The notes beneath the pieces were generated by a model that saw nothing but the letters and a program-made list of their open reading frames with translations, made no database searches and had not been told where the DNA came from. A program made the position numbers and the translations under genes. A stretch of 52,944 bases of DNA. It comes from Minisyncoccota bacterium (GTDB lineage Bacteria; Patescibacteriota; Minisyncoccia; Phycocordibacterales; UBA918). The DNA is taken from positions 1 to 52,944 of the forward strand of contig CALJTT010000005.1 in assembly GCA_937975855.1 (NCBI GenBank), given 5' to 3'. Every line of letters starts with the position of its first letter. The stretch's first letter is position 1. Of the stretch, positions 45,244 to 51,957 are shown piece after piece.

Positions 45244-47364
45244 ATGAAAGAAGATGGATTTCCGCCACCAGAGAGAGAAGTTGACGCTATAGAAATTTTG
45301 GAAGAGCGTTTTCCTGAATCTGAATATGTTTCAGAGATAACCCACCCAGAAACTGGCGAGTCTTTTCGGGTTTTTGACTTGCAAACAATGAAAGACTTTG
45401 TTGGCAAGAGGCTGGAAGTTTCTTTGCAAAACAAAAAACACCGCGTCAATAAATTCAAAGTCTTAAACGCTTTGTTTGAGAGACATCAAGGAGAAATTTG
45501 TCTAACTTCTGAGCAAGTTTCACAAGGTAATTTTGATGCGAAACCTTTATTCTACTCCCCGGTCTCTGCCGAGAGTGCAGGAGATTCACTTGAAATCGCA
45601 GACGCTGAATTCCAGATACCTTTATGGGAATTAAGGCCTACAGAACTTAGCGATCGTGATCGAGAATATCCTACAGAAGGAGAAGACTCTCTCACTAACC
45701 TTGAAGCATATGCAGGAATTACATTATTTCATCCAGATTACGGTGATGCTAGGCGCAACCCAAGGGATGGTAAATTATACGTAAAGAATCCTGACTATGA
45801 CTCACAAGATCCCGAGAGTCCCAAAAGAATAGAGCTCAACGATACTGCTCTTCGTTTGTATAATTTGGCCAGCGCCTTGAGAACTAGAAAAACTGCAGAC
45901 GGTCTCGAGAATAGGACTGCCCGAGAGGGTCTATTAGAAGACTTGCCGAACTTGTTAGCGAGTGGCGCGCTAAAATTAGAGGACTTGCCAGAAGTAACCT
46001 TGTCAAAAGATGGAGGGTATCATGAAGACTTTATTGACAAGCAAGTTGCAAAAAATGGATTTGTGAACCTGGCTGGCGTTCGCCAGTATTCTGGCAAACA
46101 ATATGCTGGTATGGAAGTTCGTTCACTAGGAAAAGAAAATGCGATAGTTTTTGATTCCGAAGGAAATTTGGTTTCCAGCTTTACAGTAGTGCCAAAAGGA
46201 TTAGCGATTACAGACGAGGTGGAGAGTACGGGTAAGATTATCCCCCGGACTAACGCCAAGTTAACCAAGCCGATCCACGTTAACTACAAAAAACTGGTCC
46301 CTGATGTTGATGAAGGATTTCGTTCGGAAACAGTTATTCATAAACGGGAGGCAATCGCAGCACAAGTTACGCAGGCAGTTAGGCAGATCTTAGAGCTTGC
46401 AAATAACGCTGAGGCGTTGCTAAAAAGTGAGTACAATGAAGATATTGTTGACGCCAACATGGTCACAGCAGTCCGGAATGATTTACTTGATCAGGCGAAA
46501 AGGGTGATTGTTTTAGCGAGTACCAGCCCTGACGCCGAAATTCTAGAACAACAGTTAGAGATCTTTGAGGCAGACACTCGTGCATTCGTGGCGTTGAGTA
46601 AAAACACAGGCTTAGAACAATTGCTTGAAAGACCACTAGAAAAAGTTCCAGCCTCCGAGTTATCAGAGGATGACAAAACAACCATGCGTGATTTACTGGA
46701 GGCTAATTATTTGGCTGAATATCCTGGCGAAGAAAACGAATCTTTCCGTGACGGCGTCGCCGCTTCTTTTGAAGATGCTTTACAATTACCGGATACAGAA
46801 TTTTTTATACTTCGTGATCAAGACCGAATAGTGAGTTTCAATCGGTTTGACCACATGGAAGATAAACAGGGTCAGTTGCAATATTTTGGCTCCTTTAATG
46901 CCAGCCCTCTATATAAGGGAATAGGTGGAAATTTGTTAGAAGAAACTATTGCTGTACGTTTGCAAGAAACAGAGAGAATCTTTGCCCATTGCGATCCCAA
47001 CTCCGTCATCAGCCAGAAGTACATCGAGTCAGGTTTTTCAGCCACGCAGTTAGGTGAAGCTTGGGGTAAGCCAAGTTTTGAAATCTGGCGTTCCAGAAAA
47101 TCAAACGACGATCTGAAAACCAAAGTAATGTCAATTGAAGATTTAAAAGATCTGGCCTCGGTTTCTGTGAGTCCAGATGATGATTATTTTGTACGTGAGG
47201 TTGAAGAGAAAGACTCTTTCGAAGAGCTTGATGATGGACTATCTTATCTTTTGACTCGTTATTTTACACACGAAGGCAAAACTTACGCTGCGTTTGAGCT
47301 AAATACAGAATTATCTAAATCTTTTGTACACGTAGAGCCTGAAGAGGAAGGGCTTGTTGCCTAG
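45244..47364 (+). CDS. large hypothetical protein with C-terminal GNAT-like domain
   Basis: 706-aa ORF; FFILRDQDRIVSFNRFDHM...GSFNASPLYKGIGGNLLEETIAVRL...SQKYIESGFSATQLGEAWGKPSFEIWRS. Confidence 0.75.
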   Translation: MKEDGFPPPEREVDAIEILEERFPESEYVSEITHPETGESFRVFDLQTMKDFVGKRLEVSLQNKKHRVNKFKVLNALFERHQGEICLTSEQVSQGNFDAKPLFYSPVSAESAGDSLEIADAEFQIPLWELRPTELSDRDREYPTEGEDSLTNLEAYAGITLFHPDYGDARRNPRDGKLYVKNPDYDSQDPESPKRIELNDTALRLYNLASALRTRKTADGLENRTAREGLLEDLPNLLASGALKLEDLPEVTLSKDGGYHEDFIDKQVAKNGFVNLAGVRQYSGKQYAGMEVRSLGKENAIVFDSEGNLVSSFTVVPKGLAITDEVESTGKIIPRTNAKLTKPIHVNYKKLVPDVDEGFRSETVIHKREAIAAQVTQAVRQILELANNAEALLKSEYNEDIVDANMVTAVRNDLLDQAKRVIVLASTSPDAEILEQQLEIFEADTRAFVALSKNTGLEQLLERPLEKVPASELSEDDKTTMRDLLEANYLAEYPGEENESFRDGVAASFEDALQLPDTEFFILRDQDRIVSFNRFDHMEDKQGQLQYFGSFNASPLYKGIGGNLLEETIAVRLQETERIFAHCDPNSVISQKYIESGFSATQLGEAWGKPSFEIWRSRKSNDDLKTKVMSIEDLKDLASVSVSPDDDYFVREVEEKDSFEELDDGLSYLLTRYFTHEGKTYAAFELNTELSKSFVHVEPEEEGLVA

Positions 47365-48155
47365 ATCTCTACTCCACCAGCACATCCCCACAAACTCTCA
47401 AATAAATACTTGTGTGTACCAGCAATAAACTGGTCGGTGATAATGATCCCCACCATGTATTCGTCAGTCAACGTAATATAAGACACTTTGTTGTCATATA
47501 TCTGCATGACGGTCTGAAAGGAAGAAAGCGACTCGCCAGCCTTTATGAGCTTGGTGTGAGTCACTTCTCCGTCATACGAAGTCAAAAATTTTCGGGCCTC
47601 AGGAGAATCAATTACTAAACCACGCTTCTTTACATCTTTGTCTTCCCTCATAACGGAATACTCGGCGTTGAGATCAGGTATATATTTAGAAATAGATTCC
47701 AGATCTGCGTAGGTAAGAATCTCTTCTGTGGCAGTGAGGCTATCCATCAACACTTCCCAAACTCCGTCCTTTCCTTCATAAAACTGCACACCTGGCTTTC
47801 CGACACTTAGGTTAAATAGAGACGATAGTTTTCCAGAGGTGGTCAAGAACTGTTGTCTGGTCCGTTCGATACGCTCTTTTTGGTCGTCGATTACTTTAGA
47901 TATCGCCACTGGATGTTTTGGCACGAAACGCGCCACCTTGCTGCCAGTGCTTACTTTTTGGGCTAGTTCAAGAGTAATTAATTCCTCAAGTATTTTATAT
48001 ACAAATGGCCGTGATAGGGCCGTACCGCTTGGAATAGCTTTAGCGATAGAGCTTGCTGGAGACTCTCCCAGCTTTAAAAGCACCTCATATACAATAGCTT
48101 GCTCGCTTGAAAGGCCAGCATCGGTGATTTGTTGGGTATATTCTAATTGGATCAT
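47361..48155 (-). CDS. TrmB-family HTH transcriptional regulator
   Basis: ITDAGLSSEQAIVYEVLLKLGESPASSIAKAI...SRPFVYKILEELITLELAQKV. Confidence 0.85.
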   Translation of the reverse strand: MIQLEYTQQITDAGLSSEQAIVYEVLLKLGESPASSIAKAIPSGTALSRPFVYKILEELITLELAQKVSTGSKVARFVPKHPVAISKVIDDQKERIERTRQQFLTTSGKLSSLFNLSVGKPGVQFYEGKDGVWEVLMDSLTATEEILTYADLESISKYIPDLNAEYSVMREDKDVKKRGLVIDSPEARKFLTSYDGEVTHTKLIKAGESLSSFQTVMQIYDNKVSYITLTDEYMVGIIITDQFIAGTHKYLFESLWGCAGGVEI

Positions 48156-48283: not shown

Positions 48284-48312
48284 TTGACAATACAATAATA
48301 ATCTGCTATAGT
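48284..48312 (+). promoter_or_regulatory. sigma70-type promoter
   Basis: TTGACA (48284-48289), 17-nt spacer, TATAGT (48307-48312). Confidence 0.8.
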
Positions 48313-48318
48313 ATAGAA

Positions 48319-48917
48319 AGTTAAGAAGCAAGACAAGGAGAGAGAACCGAGTCACTTCAAGGAGAGAGATCCTTCCAGGGAATCAAGAGAAATACAACCC
48401 GAGACGCTCACGCAGCAAAGCTGCTGGTGACCACAGCCAAAAGTGTGGCAGACAAAGAGTGAAAGGAACAACTTGTATCACTCAACGATTCGTTTGCAGA
48501 TGCTGGAAAGAGGCCGCAAACCCCTTTCATCACAAGGCATCACCCGCAAAACCCGCAATCATTGATTGCAGGAACGTCGGCTGGGCACAACTCCCTAACC
48601 AAGAGTTGTTTCCAGAAACGTTCCTTAGCCCTGACCTGATAAGTCAAGGATGAGAGGAGAGAGAATTGACAACTGAATATCAAACAAGCTGCCGGGCTAA
48701 ACACCTGGTGGCAGAAACTGGAACACAAGCGAACCAAAAACTGCTTGTGTCTCCACACTACACCCCAAGCCTTAGATAGGAGTTGGAGGGTGGTGTGGCG
48801 ATCTCAGGAGAGAGCCCGTTCAGTATCTATGCAGGGAGTACCTGTAGTAGCAATAGTCTGAATGAAAACGGTCCGCCATACGCAATAGTGCGTAGGATCA
48901 CAGAGGGAGTACCTCAA
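48319..48917 (+). ncRNA. ~600-nt structured leader RNA
   Basis: Multiple stems, e.g. GCAATC-att-GATTGC (48555-48569), ACAACTC/GAGTTGT (48587-48609), ACACAAGC/GCTTGTGT (48723-48750), CCACAC-ta-CACCC/GGGTG-GTGTGG (48753-48798), TACGCA-atag-TGCGTA (48879-48894). Confidence 0.5.
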
Positions 48918-49616
48918 ATGCAAATCGTATTTAAAACCGCCGATGACCGTGATTTTTCCAGTGTTGATTTTCAACGCTGGATTGAGACGGAAGGGGTCGG
49001 TTTCGAGACTGACTTTGATTCTTGTGCCAGCTTCTCTGAAGCGGGCAGCGAAAAACGCCCACGTTTAGTGTGGACGACTTCTTGGTCTGGTTTTGTTTAC
49101 AAGTGGATCGTAAACAAAAAGTGGTGGGTCTATGATGGTGCTGAGAAAGGTTTCTTAGCCCAAGACCTCCTGCCGCCAGTTCTGGCTGAGGCCAAAGACG
49201 TGGAGATCGTCCGTGTCTTTGGTACTTACGGAAACTTCGAGGGCCCAGATGCTCTCGAATCCTACCAGAGCGCAAAGCGCTGGTGGGAAGAAATCACAGG
49301 GGTCTTCTACGACTCCTTTGAAACGTTCGGCTTCTTCCATCACGGTGGGTGGAAGAAGTCGGAATGGACCAAGCTCGTTTATGAGCTGGTTCAGAACCCC
49401 GAAATGCAGTTCGAAAACCTCGACGAAGCCGAGGTTGCTCGACTGGAAAAAGCCGAGGCGATCACATGGGCCTATCGTAGGCTTTGTGACCGCACTTCGG
49501 GTGGTCACAGTATTGGCGCAGGACGTATGAGCCTCCGCCAATTTGCTGAATTGATCGTCTACATGCGGTCAATTCACCAGGATCATTGGCCGAATACGCC
49601 AGTGACTCCGATGTAA
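48918..49616 (+). CDS. orphan hypothetical protein A, hairpin-tiled CDS
   Basis: ATG 48918 after AGAGGGAG; 232 aa; no recognisable family. Confidence 0.7.
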   Translation: MQIVFKTADDRDFSSVDFQRWIETEGVGFETDFDSCASFSEAGSEKRPRLVWTTSWSGFVYKWIVNKKWWVYDGAEKGFLAQDLLPPVLAEAKDVEIVRVFGTYGNFEGPDALESYQSAKRWWEEITGVFYDSFETFGFFHHGGWKKSEWTKLVYELVQNPEMQFENLDEAEVARLEKAEAITWAYRRLCDRTSGGHSIGAGRMSLRQFAELIVYMRSIHQDHWPNTPVTPM

Positions 49617-49835
49617 AAACTGTTCCGGGGCGTTCGCGCCTCGGAACCTTCTCGAACTGAAGTAAAAAGTTTATGGTTTTCTTAAACTACAAGATGGCAT
49701 CTTGGTTTGAGATTCTTATAAAGTGTCTGATTTGTTCAGATGCTTTTAGGAAATACCGCTCAAACCGGCCTGCTTAGCAGGAAACAATAGTTTGGTGAGT
49801 CTCATGATGAGGCGATAAATCCGGGAGGATTAGAT

Positions 49836-50261
49836 ATGCTCAAGTTTGAAGCAACTTTCGGCGTCACCGCCGGTTACGGTCACGGCAACGCCGGTGGCAC
49901 CGCCGATCCAGCGGCCGTCGTGGCCCGCGTTTGGCGTGAGGCACTGGAGGCAGAATTTGCTGTTTCCAAAATTTTGGTCGGCGGCATTGTGACCGCCGGT
50001 CGGGTGGTTTACCCGGCCGACTTTGGCTGCCCGGATGATGGGGAGGTCGTCGCCACAGTCAGTGGCGATGCTAATCCAAAATTCGTCGAGCCTGACAAGC
50101 TCGACGATTTCCGCGAGGCGGTTATTCGCGTCGTGGAAACGGTCAAGGACGCGCTCAAGCAAGAGCGCGTTCAGCTGGTATTCGCCAGCAACTTTGGGTT
50201 CGTTTACTACGAACCCGAGTCGACCGGCGGGACGCAGCGCTGGGGTTGCGCTGCAGACTAA
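49836..50261 (+). CDS. orphan hypothetical protein B, hairpin-tiled CDS
   Basis: GGGAGGA RBS before ATG; 141 aa. Confidence 0.72.
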   Translation: MLKFEATFGVTAGYGHGNAGGTADPAAVVARVWREALEAEFAVSKILVGGIVTAGRVVYPADFGCPDDGEVVATVSGDANPKFVEPDKLDDFREAVIRVVETVKDALKQERVQLVFASNFGFVYYEPESTGGTQRWGCAAD

Positions 50262-50482
50262 AAGAATGAAGAGTGACGACAGGTCGCTCTTCATTTTCCG
50301 GCAGGAAATAAATCATGCAGGTTGGTTAAGTCTCGCAGGTTGGTTTGGTTACCAGACTGCGAGCTCCATTTGAGGACTTCATTGCGTATGCGGTGGAGAG
50401 TTCAAATGGGGATATAAAACCCAAAGAAATGAGGAGTAACACTCCGCCAAAAGTGAGTGTAAAAAATTGAAGGAGAAAAGAA

Positions 50483-51193
50483 GTGGGAAAGAAACGTAGA
50501 GGCAATAGAAAAAATAATTTTTCTCCTCTGGCTACAACGCCAGAGGCAGCGGAAAAAATAAACAAAAATCAGCGCCTGCAAGAAATTTTGCAGGCGCTTG
50601 GCGCCGAACCGACACTCTATCGAAAGATAGGGAGTCATTCGTATTACGGTACGGGTGGCGATAGATGGAGGTCATCGACCCTCAGGTCCTACCAGACGGT
50701 CACCTATCAGGTGACCGGCGGAAAAAGGATTGATATCGGTGATCTCTCCCAAAAGGAGCTGGTCAATGCGGGAATTCGCATTGTGGATCAATCATGGGAA
50801 GAAGCGCAGGCGGCTGCCGAAAAGCAACGTCGCCTGCGTAATGCTGTCCGGCGTGCGATTGAAACGACGCGATATGAGATCGTGTCGTTTAGTAAAAAGT
50901 CGAACACCAAAGGCATTCGAGCTAGCCGCCAGGGTACGTTACTACAGCTGCGCGCTCGACCGCATGATTACGGTGAGCGCGTAAACGTAAATGGTGACTT
51001 TGGTGGTCATCGTTTACGCAACATGGGTGGCGGATACACGAGTATTCGCCGTGTCGACCAAAACAAGTGGGTGAACATGCCTGCAAAGTTCTGGTCACTT
51101 CAGCAAGACGAATTGTGTGACTTTCTAGCACAGTTCGTCACAGAAGAGGATTTGGCCCAAGAAAACAAGGGAGAATGTCGTGACGCAATTTAG
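50483..51193 (+). CDS. orphan hypothetical protein C, hairpin-tiled CDS
   Basis: GGAGAAAAGAA RBS, GTG start; 236 aa, basic N-terminus. Confidence 0.72.
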   Translation: MGKKRRGNRKNNFSPLATTPEAAEKINKNQRLQEILQALGAEPTLYRKIGSHSYYGTGGDRWRSSTLRSYQTVTYQVTGGKRIDIGDLSQKELVNAGIRIVDQSWEEAQAAAEKQRRLRNAVRRAIETTRYEIVSFSKKSNTKGIRASRQGTLLQLRARPHDYGERVNVNGDFGGHRLRNMGGGYTSIRRVDQNKWVNMPAKFWSLQQDELCDFLAQFVTEEDLAQENKGECRDAI

Positions 51194-51599
51194 TCTTAAA
51201 TCCAGGAGGCGACTCTTAGAGAGTCGCCTCGACTCTCTCCAGAAGCGAGTCGAAAACGCGAAATGGTTCTTGCTAGGACTAGATGTCCAGCAGAAGCCTT
51301 TTGTTCTCGGGGAGGAAAGTATCTTCTATGGAGTTAGGGTATATCCTTACTTCCATGAAGAGGTTGATAAACTCGAACGAGAAATAAAAAAAGACCTGAA
51401 AAGGGTCAAAGACAAAATTACCGAGATCAACGTGCACCTCAAGCGAGGTGCACGACCGAAAGAAAAAGATTTGGGTCGAGCGTTCACCGAATCTCGGTTC
51501 GGGACTAGTGACAGAGTTTACTTCGTTACGAGTCATGTCTTTGCTGGCCAAGAAATAAACGGACAGACGCTTGAATATATCAATCGTTTATGCAAATGA
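51180..51599 (+). CDS. orphan hypothetical protein D, overlaps C
   Basis: 139-aa ORF starting inside 3' end of C, GGGAGAA RBS-like; Lys/Arg-rich coiled segments. Confidence 0.65.
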   Translation: MTQFSLKSRRRLLESRLDSLQKRVENAKWFLLGLDVQQKPFVLGEESIFYGVRVYPYFHEEVDKLEREIKKDLKRVKDKITEINVHLKRGARPKEKDLGRAFTESRFGTSDRVYFVTSHVFAGQEINGQTLEYINRLCK

Positions 51600-51628
51600 T
51601 TGATCGAGGTTCTTCCAAAGTAAAGGTT

Positions 51629-51663
51629 ACCCCAACCGCACGGTTATGTGGTTGGGGGTTTTA
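51629..51663 (+). terminator. terminator of the orphan operon
   Basis: ACCCCAACC...GGTTGGGGG followed by TTTTATT. Confidence 0.75.
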
Positions 51664-51957
51664 TTAGACTCCCGAAACATCGGTGGTCTATAGAGTTATT
51701 CCTACAAAACAGACGATATACCATACTGCGTACATTTTCGTGTCACGACCACTGTCGGGCTCGATCTATCTCTCTCCGTGTACGCTTGGTATGTCTTCTG
51801 TGTTGTGGGTGTAATGTATTTAAAACACAAAACCGCCCTGGCTGAGGACGGTCTTGCAATTGTGTGATGGGAAATAGTGGTGGTAGCCTCTAAGTATTTC
51901 CTACATAGTGTTTTACCTCCACTACCCAAAAATTATAGCATACGAGTTTTGAGAAAA

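What the first reader, a model, noticed from the sequence alone, without database searches (positions are those of the whole stretch)
48918..51604. Coding sequences of four orphan genes are tiled almost continuously with perfect or near-perfect stem-loops
Read base by base, more than 30 stems lie inside ORFs A-D. They are mostly 7-13 bp with 3-9 nt loops, spaced every few tens of nucleotides, often with G-U pairs where codons constrain. Examples in A: 48958-48980 CCAGTGTTGA-ttt-TCAACGCTGG; 49091-49119 TTTTGTTTAC/GTAAACAAAA; 49236-49259 TTCGAGGGC/GCTCTCGAA; 49329-49360 (13 bp); 49548-49575 GAATTGATCG/CGGTCAATTC. In B: 50083-50107 TCGTCGAGC/GCTCGACGA; 50148-50171; 50196-50216 GGGTTCGT/ACGAACCC; 50234-50254 GCAGCGC/GCGCTGC. 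In C: 50571-50598 AGCGCCTGCAA/TTGCAGGCGCT; 50697-50717 CGGTCACCT-atc-AGGTGACCG; 50862-50890 AAACGACGCGAT-atgag-ATCGTGTCGTTT; 51107-51139 GACGAATTGTGT/GCACAGTTCGTC. In D: 51206-51230 GAGGCGACTCT-tag-AGAGTCGCCTC; 51431-51454 CGTGCACCTC-aagc-GAGGTGCACG. Ordinary genes of the window do not show this on inspection. The coding sequence therefore appears co-selected for local RNA (or ssDNA) folding. Known precedents for such dense structure in coding RNA are compact single-stranded replicons such as leviviruses. Here it is chromosomal, with no recognisable polymerase or capsid. Candidates: a structured functional mRNA, a packaged or protected RNA, or a domesticated or integrated single-stranded replicon.
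Basis: seen in the sequence. Interest (0 to 1): 0.9.

Follow-up and report, generated by a model that had tools for sequence, protein, structure and literature searches.

The report
Bacterial operon with virus-like folded mRNA
A four-gene unit in the chromosome of an ultra-small bacterium makes an mRNA folded from end to end as densely as the genome of an RNA virus, and similar gene islands carrying CRISPR-signal enzymes occur in unrelated members of the same phylum, which suggests a so far undescribed class of DNA-encoded genes selected for RNA folding.

Summary
Under codon-preserving shuffles genes A–D fold 9–14 kcal/mol per 120 nt more stably than expected (z −6.8 to −9.3). Seven control genes of the window score −1.9 to +1.4. 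By the same measure MS2 and Qβ reach this level; E. coli, Thermus, T7, phiX174, M13 and a jumbo phage do not. Folding covers one transcription unit (about 48.3–51.66 kb), leader and spacers included, and stops at its edges. G·U outnumbers A·C in the stems (33:9, against 96:81 in the rest of the window), so the sense RNA is the likely target.
Gene B is not an orphan. It is a SAM-AMP-lyase homologue (PDB phmmer E 1e-15, catalytic Glu and Gln kept), related to type III CRISPR accessory proteins. A, C and D have no relatives.
Structure-blind protein searches found three more densely folded islands in other Patescibacteria families, with Csx3-AAA, a lyase-like protein, MoxR/VWA or an RNA helicase. 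Homologous island genes are dense in both genomes compared, yet share few stems and show no excess compensation. Selection therefore appears to act on general foldedness.
Leading but unproven mechanism: RNA armour against RNA-directed attack, alongside enzymes that remove CRISPR alarm signals. An RNA replicon is not supported.

The parts
47361..48155 (-). TrmB-type transcriptional regulator, divergent from the operon; itself not folded
   Evidence: Pfam TrmB E 2e-6; 29% identical, E 1e-30, to a TrmB gene divergent from the G144 island; folding z near 0
48284..48312 (+). sigma-70-type promoter TTGACA-17-TATAGT, with TG before the -10
   Evidence: 11 of 12 consensus matches; position fits the start of folding between 48.3 and 48.55 kb. 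As many promoter-like sites are expected by chance in this stretch, so it is a prediction
48317..48917 (+). structured leader of about 600 nt with four GGAGAGAG motifs
   Evidence: dinucleotide-shuffle z -5.4; motif positions
48918..49616 (+). gene A, 232 aa, no relatives found
   Evidence: AGGGAG upstream of ATG in the sequence; codon-shuffle z -7.6; no hits
49836..50261 (+). gene B, 141 aa, SAM-AMP-lyase homologue (PADLOC Mvol_0529 family)
   Evidence: PDB 9lqd/9gad E 1e-15; PADLOC E 1.6e-19; Foldseek 9gab E 9e-10; E70, Q109, C65, Y59 conserved; codon-shuffle z -6.8
50483..51193 (+). gene C, 236 aa, no relatives found; most strongly folded
   Evidence: codon-shuffle z -9.3; no significant hits; AF2 model poor, pLDDT 46
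51180..51599 (+). gene D, 139 aa, overlaps the end of C, no relatives found
   Evidence: codon-shuffle z -7.0; no significant family or PDB hit; not searched in other genomes or phages
51630..51665 (+). intrinsic terminator ending the transcription unit
   Evidence: 11-bp stem then T-rich tail

Best explanation
This is one transcription unit whose whole mRNA (leader, four genes, spacers) is under selection to be densely and locally base-paired, to the degree of an RNA-phage genome. It is one of a class of accessory islands in Patescibacteria that share this property and carry enzymes related to type III CRISPR signalling: a SAM-AMP-lyase homologue here, Csx3-AAA and a lyase-like protein elsewhere. 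Shown by computation: the folding excess, its limits at the transcription unit, the G-U bias, the loss of individual stems between homologous island genes while density stays, and B's homology with its catalytic residues. Inferred: the folding leaves little single-stranded RNA, so the transcript resists RNA-directed attack (crRNA-guided type III surveillance or single-strand-specific RNases, own or foreign), while B destroys SAM-AMP, the alarm molecule of type III-B systems. I put about 0.85 on RNA-level selection for general foldedness in a recurrent class of islands, and about 0.3 on the armour-against-RNA-attack function.
For: Codon-shuffle z -6.8 to -9.3 for A-D, with MS2 -5.0 to -11.2 and controls near 0. 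Yardsticks, mean excess in kcal/mol per 120 nt: E. coli -1.5, Thermus -2.4, T7 -1.3, phiX174 -0.5, M13 -2.1, jumbo phage -1.2, MS2 -9.6, Qbeta -7.5. Untranslated parts are equally folded and the signal stops at the unit's edges. G-U:A-C 33:9 against 96:81, Fisher p 0.005; sister islands pooled 123:77 against 38:51 in host stretches, p 0.003. Unpaired positions are 54% A. Islands in G108, G418 and G144, retrieved by protein only, are all folded while their neighbours are not. Cyanobacterial Csx3-AAA genes and the B homologues of Clostridium and a jumbo phage are not folded beyond z -1.9, so folding belongs to the islands, not to the protein families. Few stems are shared between homologous island genes (30/474, 122/689, 21/198) and two-sided changes keep pairing at about the chance rate. 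B homology. Csx3.
Against: No expression, probing or activity data. No direct link between foldedness and resistance to any nuclease or CRISPR complex. No Cmr2-type Cas10 in 38 genomes of the genus and no CRISPR array in the assembled genome, so the supposed attacker is unidentified; the genome is 66% complete. B's homologues in a jumbo phage and Clostridium do without folded mRNA. G-U:A-C is also 2:1 in E. coli, and the operon's bias is not significant against that baseline (p 0.17). The G108 lyase-like protein is a weak match. The G144 island is less uniform. A, C and D are unexplained.
Confidence: 0.4

Rival explanations
1. Foldedness serves expression: a long-lived or slowly translated mRNA protected from the cell's own RNases, or translation gated by an RNA helicase, with no conflict role.
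For: Whole-unit folding with the start regions of C and D more open than their bodies (unpaired 0.80 and 0.57 against 0.40 and 0.35). The G144 island contains a DEAH helicase with RNA-helicase-type accessory domains. Katz and Burge, cited in PMC6544989, report structural selection in bacterial genes.
Against: Ordinary genes in this genome reach nowhere near this level. Start regions of A and B are hardly more open than the rest. It does not explain confinement to accessory islands with CRISPR-signal enzymes.
Confidence: 0.3
2. The unit passes through a packaged, transferred or replicated RNA stage: a domesticated RNA-phage-like genome or satellite.
For: Folding density equals MS2 and Qbeta; length about 3.35 kb; A-rich unpaired positions.
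Against: No polymerase, coat or reverse transcriptase hit; chromosomal promoter and terminator; sister islands are larger and encode AAA+, VWA, helicase and Csx3 proteins; no phage or viral-contig hit for A or C.
Confidence: 0.08
3. The hairpins are a mutational product, such as template-switch conversion of imperfect to perfect palindromes in foreign DNA under weak selection.
For: Near-perfect stems with short loops; islands are accessory and partly orphan.
Against: DNA-level palindromes would give equal G-T and A-C mismatches, but 33:9 is seen. Folding stops at the transcription unit. In the G108-G418 and G108-G144 pairs density persists while stems turn over.
Confidence: 0.1
4. The islands come from a donor lineage whose whole genome has strongly folded genes, so the feature is a donor signature.
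For: Islands are patchily distributed; the G144 and G108 Csx3-AAA proteins are 76-77% identical across families.
Against: None of the bacteria and DNA phages sampled comes near this level. The cyanobacterial and Clostridium relatives are unfolded.
Confidence: 0.12

Closest known systems
Leviviricetes (MS2, Qbeta) genomic RNA and genome-scale ordered RNA structure of RNA viruses
   Same: Coding and non-coding RNA folded beyond codon constraint to the same degree
   Different: DNA-encoded and chromosomal, no polymerase or coat hit, different proteins, 4 to about 10 genes per island
[quoted passage not shown] PDB 9gad; PMC12255297)
   Same: Gene B: homologous sequence and fold; catalytic Glu and Gln and the lyase-specific Cys kept
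   Different: No cas genes nearby or Cmr2 in the genus; two AMP-pocket threonines replaced; family genes tested elsewhere are not folded
Phage-encoded SAM-AMP lyase, candidate AcrIIIB4 (PMC12255297)
   Same: Orphan lyase without a CRISPR locus, plausible counter-defence role
   Different: Bacterial chromosome, no fused N-terminal domain, folded mRNA
Individual bacterial ORFs under structural selection (PMC6544989: 2.54% of bacterial ORFs on average)
   Same: Synonymous codons arranged for extra folding
   Different: Here all genes and spacers of a multi-gene unit, and the extreme outliers among 508 ORFs of the genome
MoxR-VWA (RavA/ViaA-like) modules and Csx3-AAA of type III CRISPR loci
   Same: Encoded in the sister islands G108, G418 and G144
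   Different: Not present in the window operon; no cas genes recognised within these islands

Membership tests
SAM-AMP lyase (Mvol_0529 family) | Homologous sequence and ferredoxin/PII-like fold | tested here: met
   phmmer E 1e-15; PADLOC E 1.6e-19; Foldseek to 9gab E 9e-10, phage SAM lyase only 7e-4
SAM-AMP lyase (Mvol_0529 family) | Catalytic Glu (E71) and Gln (Q108), and Cys66 conserved in SAM-AMP lyases | tested here: met
   E70, Q109 and C65 in B; roles from PMC12255297
SAM-AMP lyase (Mvol_0529 family) | AMP-pocket residues W64, F84, T110, T112 | tested here: inconclusive
   F84 kept as F83; W64 is F63; T110 and T112 are R111 and Q113. W64 is not conserved in all members
SAM-AMP lyase (Mvol_0529 family) | Located in a type III-B locus with Cas10 and CorA | tested here: not met
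   No cas genes recognised around the operon; no Cmr2 in 38 genus genomes; no array. CorA was not searched
SAM-AMP lyase (Mvol_0529 family) | Cleaves SAM-AMP and not SAM | not testable with these tools
   needs an enzyme assay
Leviviricetes or ssRNA replicon | RNA-dependent RNA polymerase gene | tested here: not met
   No significant Pfam, PHROG, NCBIfam or PDB hit for A, C or D
Leviviricetes or ssRNA replicon | Coat and maturation proteins | tested here: not met
   Same searches; no match to phage records for A, B or C
Leviviricetes or ssRNA replicon | Genome-wide dense RNA folding | tested here: met
   Level equals MS2 and Qbeta
Integrated ssDNA replicon (Microviridae, Inoviridae) | Rep or morphogenesis genes and comparable folding | tested here: not met
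   No such genes recognised; phiX174 and M13 excess only -0.5 and -2.1
Known structured RNA family (Rfam) | Match at gathering score | tested here: not met
   None in the operon; with relaxed thresholds nothing inside 48.25-51.88 kb either
Conserved functional RNA structure | Compensatory substitutions at paired sites in homologues | tested here: not met
   Sister islands only: two-sided changes paired 34/82, 29/70, 9/17, about the chance rate; not testable for A-D

The most novel reading that the evidence does not exclude
A class of DNA-borne conflict islands keeps every transcript folded like an RNA-virus genome, by selection on overall foldedness and not on particular structures, so that RNA-guided or RNase-based immunity cannot reach them, and couples this to enzymes that erase type III CRISPR second messengers.
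Probability: 0.28. Interest if true: 0.95.

Novelty: categorically new. Interest (0 to 1): 0.82.

Why it matters
Genome-scale RNA folding has been treated as a hallmark of RNA viruses. Finding it in DNA-encoded bacterial gene islands, recurrent across families and tied to CRISPR-signal enzymes, gives a test bed for why whole transcripts fold. If the armour reading holds, it would be a counter-defence that acts through synonymous codons and would be missed by every protein-based search. It also offers a simple genome scan (codon-shuffle folding excess) for finding such islands.

Tried and rejected
Chance or codon artefact: rejected with codon-preserving, dinucleotide-preserving and combined shuffles. 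DNA palindromes or mutational origin: disfavoured by G-U bias and unit boundaries. ssDNA replicon: phiX174 and M13 are not folded this way. Property of the lyase or Csx3 gene family: rejected, relatives in Clostridium, a jumbo phage and cyanobacteria are not folded to this degree. Known RNA family: none. Homologues of A and C: none in the genus or about 24 other genera of the order, in viral contigs or phages. Weak B hits in G128 and G177 and the 4e-4 family hit in G418 C22 look like chance: ordinary surface or housekeeping genes, unfolded where tested. Early apparent folding near HU in G006 was a terminator and tRNA region. AF2 of C alone gave no usable model. VWA and Csx3-AAA had no relatives in viral contigs. 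The leader motif GGAGAGAG is not shared as a cluster by the sister islands. A first attempt at a whole-window scan timed out.

Full report
SETTING. In the one relative looked at closely, G006, the HU side leads to tRNA and other genes and not to this operon, so the operon is accessory. I could not check read coverage; that both flanks belong to the host rests on gene content.

OBSERVATION. Stem density, stem coverage and folding energy were tested separately. Near-perfect stems occur at 13.6 per kb in the operon against 5.4 in the rest of the window. Stem coverage of A, B, C and D exceeds all 200 codon-preserving shuffles of each. The mean MFE of 120-nt windows is 9 to 14 kcal/mol lower than in codon-preserving shuffles (z −7.6, −6.8, −9.3, −7.0), against −1.9 to +1.4 for seven control genes of the same window. 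A shuffle that also keeps every dinucleotide changes only 6–11% of bases in A–D and still gives z −3.2, −3.0, −5.8, −2.3. Over 508 ORFs in essentially all assembled bases of the genome, the ORFs covering A, B and C are the strongest outliers (my ORF caller took a wrong-strand frame over B, and D was below its length limit).

HOW EXTREME. With the same measure, mean excess per 120 nt was: E. coli −1.5, Thermus plasmid −2.4, T7 −1.3, phiX174 −0.5, M13 −2.1, a 193-kb phage contig −1.2, MS2 −9.6, Qβ −7.5. Among what I sampled, only RNA-phage genomes resemble A–D.

RNA, SENSE STRAND, WHOLE TRANSCRIPT. Leader (z −5.4), spacer A–B (−5.6) and spacer B–C (−6.8) are as folded as the genes. Folding starts between 48.3 and 48.55 kb, just after a promoter-like TTGACA-17-TATAGT at 48284-48312, and fades around the terminator at 51630-51657; the regulator gene upstream is near zero. 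In stems, G·U outnumbers A·C 33:9 against 96:81 in the rest of the window (p 0.005). A·C would be as common as G·T if DNA were the selected form, and commoner if the minus strand were. Caution: in E. coli the ratio is itself 77:39, so this rests on comparison within the genome. Unpaired positions are 54% A, as is usual for structured RNA (general knowledge).

GENE B. B is homologous to the SAM-AMP lyase of C. botulinum type III-B CRISPR (PDB 9gad/9lqd, E about 1e-15, 32% identity) and to PADLOC Mvol_0529 (E 1.6e-19). A model from four homologues (pLDDT 76) finds this enzyme first in the PDB (E 9e-10), with the phage SAM lyase much weaker (7e-4). The residues needed for activity according to PMC12255297 (E71, Q108) and the conserved C66 are kept as E70, Q109 and C65; two AMP-pocket threonines are not. 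So B is a member by sequence, fold and catalytic residues; its substrate is untested. No Cmr2-type Cas10 was found in 38 genus genomes and no CRISPR array in the genome. B's nearest relative outside is in a 193-kb phage contig (38%).

A CLASS OF ISLANDS. Three islands in other families were retrieved without reference to folding. G108 was found with a profile of B and its PDB relative (E 0.001; PADLOC family E 3e-6). G418 was found with G108's VWA protein (67%). G144 was found with the AAA-Csx3 family. All three are folded: G108 genes z −4.3 to −9.2 while murG beside them is +1.4; G418 MoxR, VWA and 884-aa genes −5.2 to −7.7; G144 up to −9.5. Their contents: Csx3-AAA (7e-60, 3e-48 and 1e-58), a Csx3 domain recognised by PDB Csx3 entries, a MoxR of the MoxR-VWA ternary type, VWA, and a DEAH helicase with HA2 domains. 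The G144 island, like the window operon, faces a divergent TrmB gene (29% identity, E 1e-30). TrmB genes may be common in these genomes, so this is only suggestive. Their cyanobacterial Csx3-AAA relatives inside type III loci are not folded (z −0.6, −1.9), nor are Clostridium lyases (+0.3, −0.8; phage −1.8). The folding belongs to the islands. A second, smaller case in the same genome is a pair of putative secreted orphan proteins on contig C28 (L074:9487-10534, excess −9.7 and −11.0).

WHAT IS SELECTED. For three homologous gene pairs (VWA and MoxR in G108/G418; Csx3-AAA in G108/G144) both copies are dense, yet only 122/689, 30/474 and 21/198 predicted pairs are also predicted in the partner. 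Pairs changed on both sides re-form in 34/82, 29/70 and 9/17 cases, close to the 4/9 expected if both bases change at random (the expectation is my estimate). This points to selection for foldedness in general, not for particular structures. For A–D no such test is possible, as no folded homologues were found.

MECHANISM. Shown by computation: dense folding of a whole transcription unit, island-specific, with stem turnover in the sister islands; a lyase homologue with intact catalytic residues. Inferred: protection from RNA-directed attack. Type III CRISPR finds foreign RNA by pairing with crRNA, and B's family removes SAM-AMP; Csx3 removes cA4 (PMC12409355). Islands that hold such enzymes without recognised cas genes read most naturally as counter-defence, or as conflict modules that must keep working while RNA is being cut. 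PMC6544989 raises small-RNA-based immunity as a possible reason for the higher structure of viral ORFs. No attacker has been identified here, and the expression-stability rival is about as likely.

LIMITS. All results are predictions from sequence. Few islands are known. The G144 signal is uneven. Frames in the sister islands were taken from simple ORF calling and some listed ORFs are spurious. The literature search covers open-access papers only; no report of such bacterial islands was found.

Noticed in passing
L074:9487-10534 (own genome, contig C28): A second strongly folded unit: two small proteins with signal-peptide-like starts and no Pfam match, followed by a hairpin, between a PRTase/PQQ-repeat-like gene and ruvA.
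   Followed up: partly
window 51810-51950, minus strand: A stretch next to HU resembles by eye a stretch at the same place in relative G006 (L029 about 1118-1195); possible small RNA, no Rfam match at gathering score.
   Followed up: partly
L068:11400-20000 and L069:1-3300 (genome G108): Island between murG and murC with two Csx3-AAA proteins, a lyase-like protein, MoxR and VWA genes, strongly folded.
   Followed up: yes
L126:9800-18300 (genome G144): Folded island with Csx3-AAA and a 1228-aa DEAH helicase, divergent from a TrmB gene.
   Followed up: partly
L065:8001-8378 (IMGVR_UViG_3300026538_000054): A 193-kb viral contig encodes a SAM-AMP-lyase homologue 38% identical to B: a candidate anti-type III CRISPR protein.
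   Followed up: no
L069:9763-10134 and L117:7605-8207 (genome G108): Two further stretches with very strong codon-shuffle folding excess (about -14) in frames that look non-coding; perhaps structured RNA genes.
   Followed up: no
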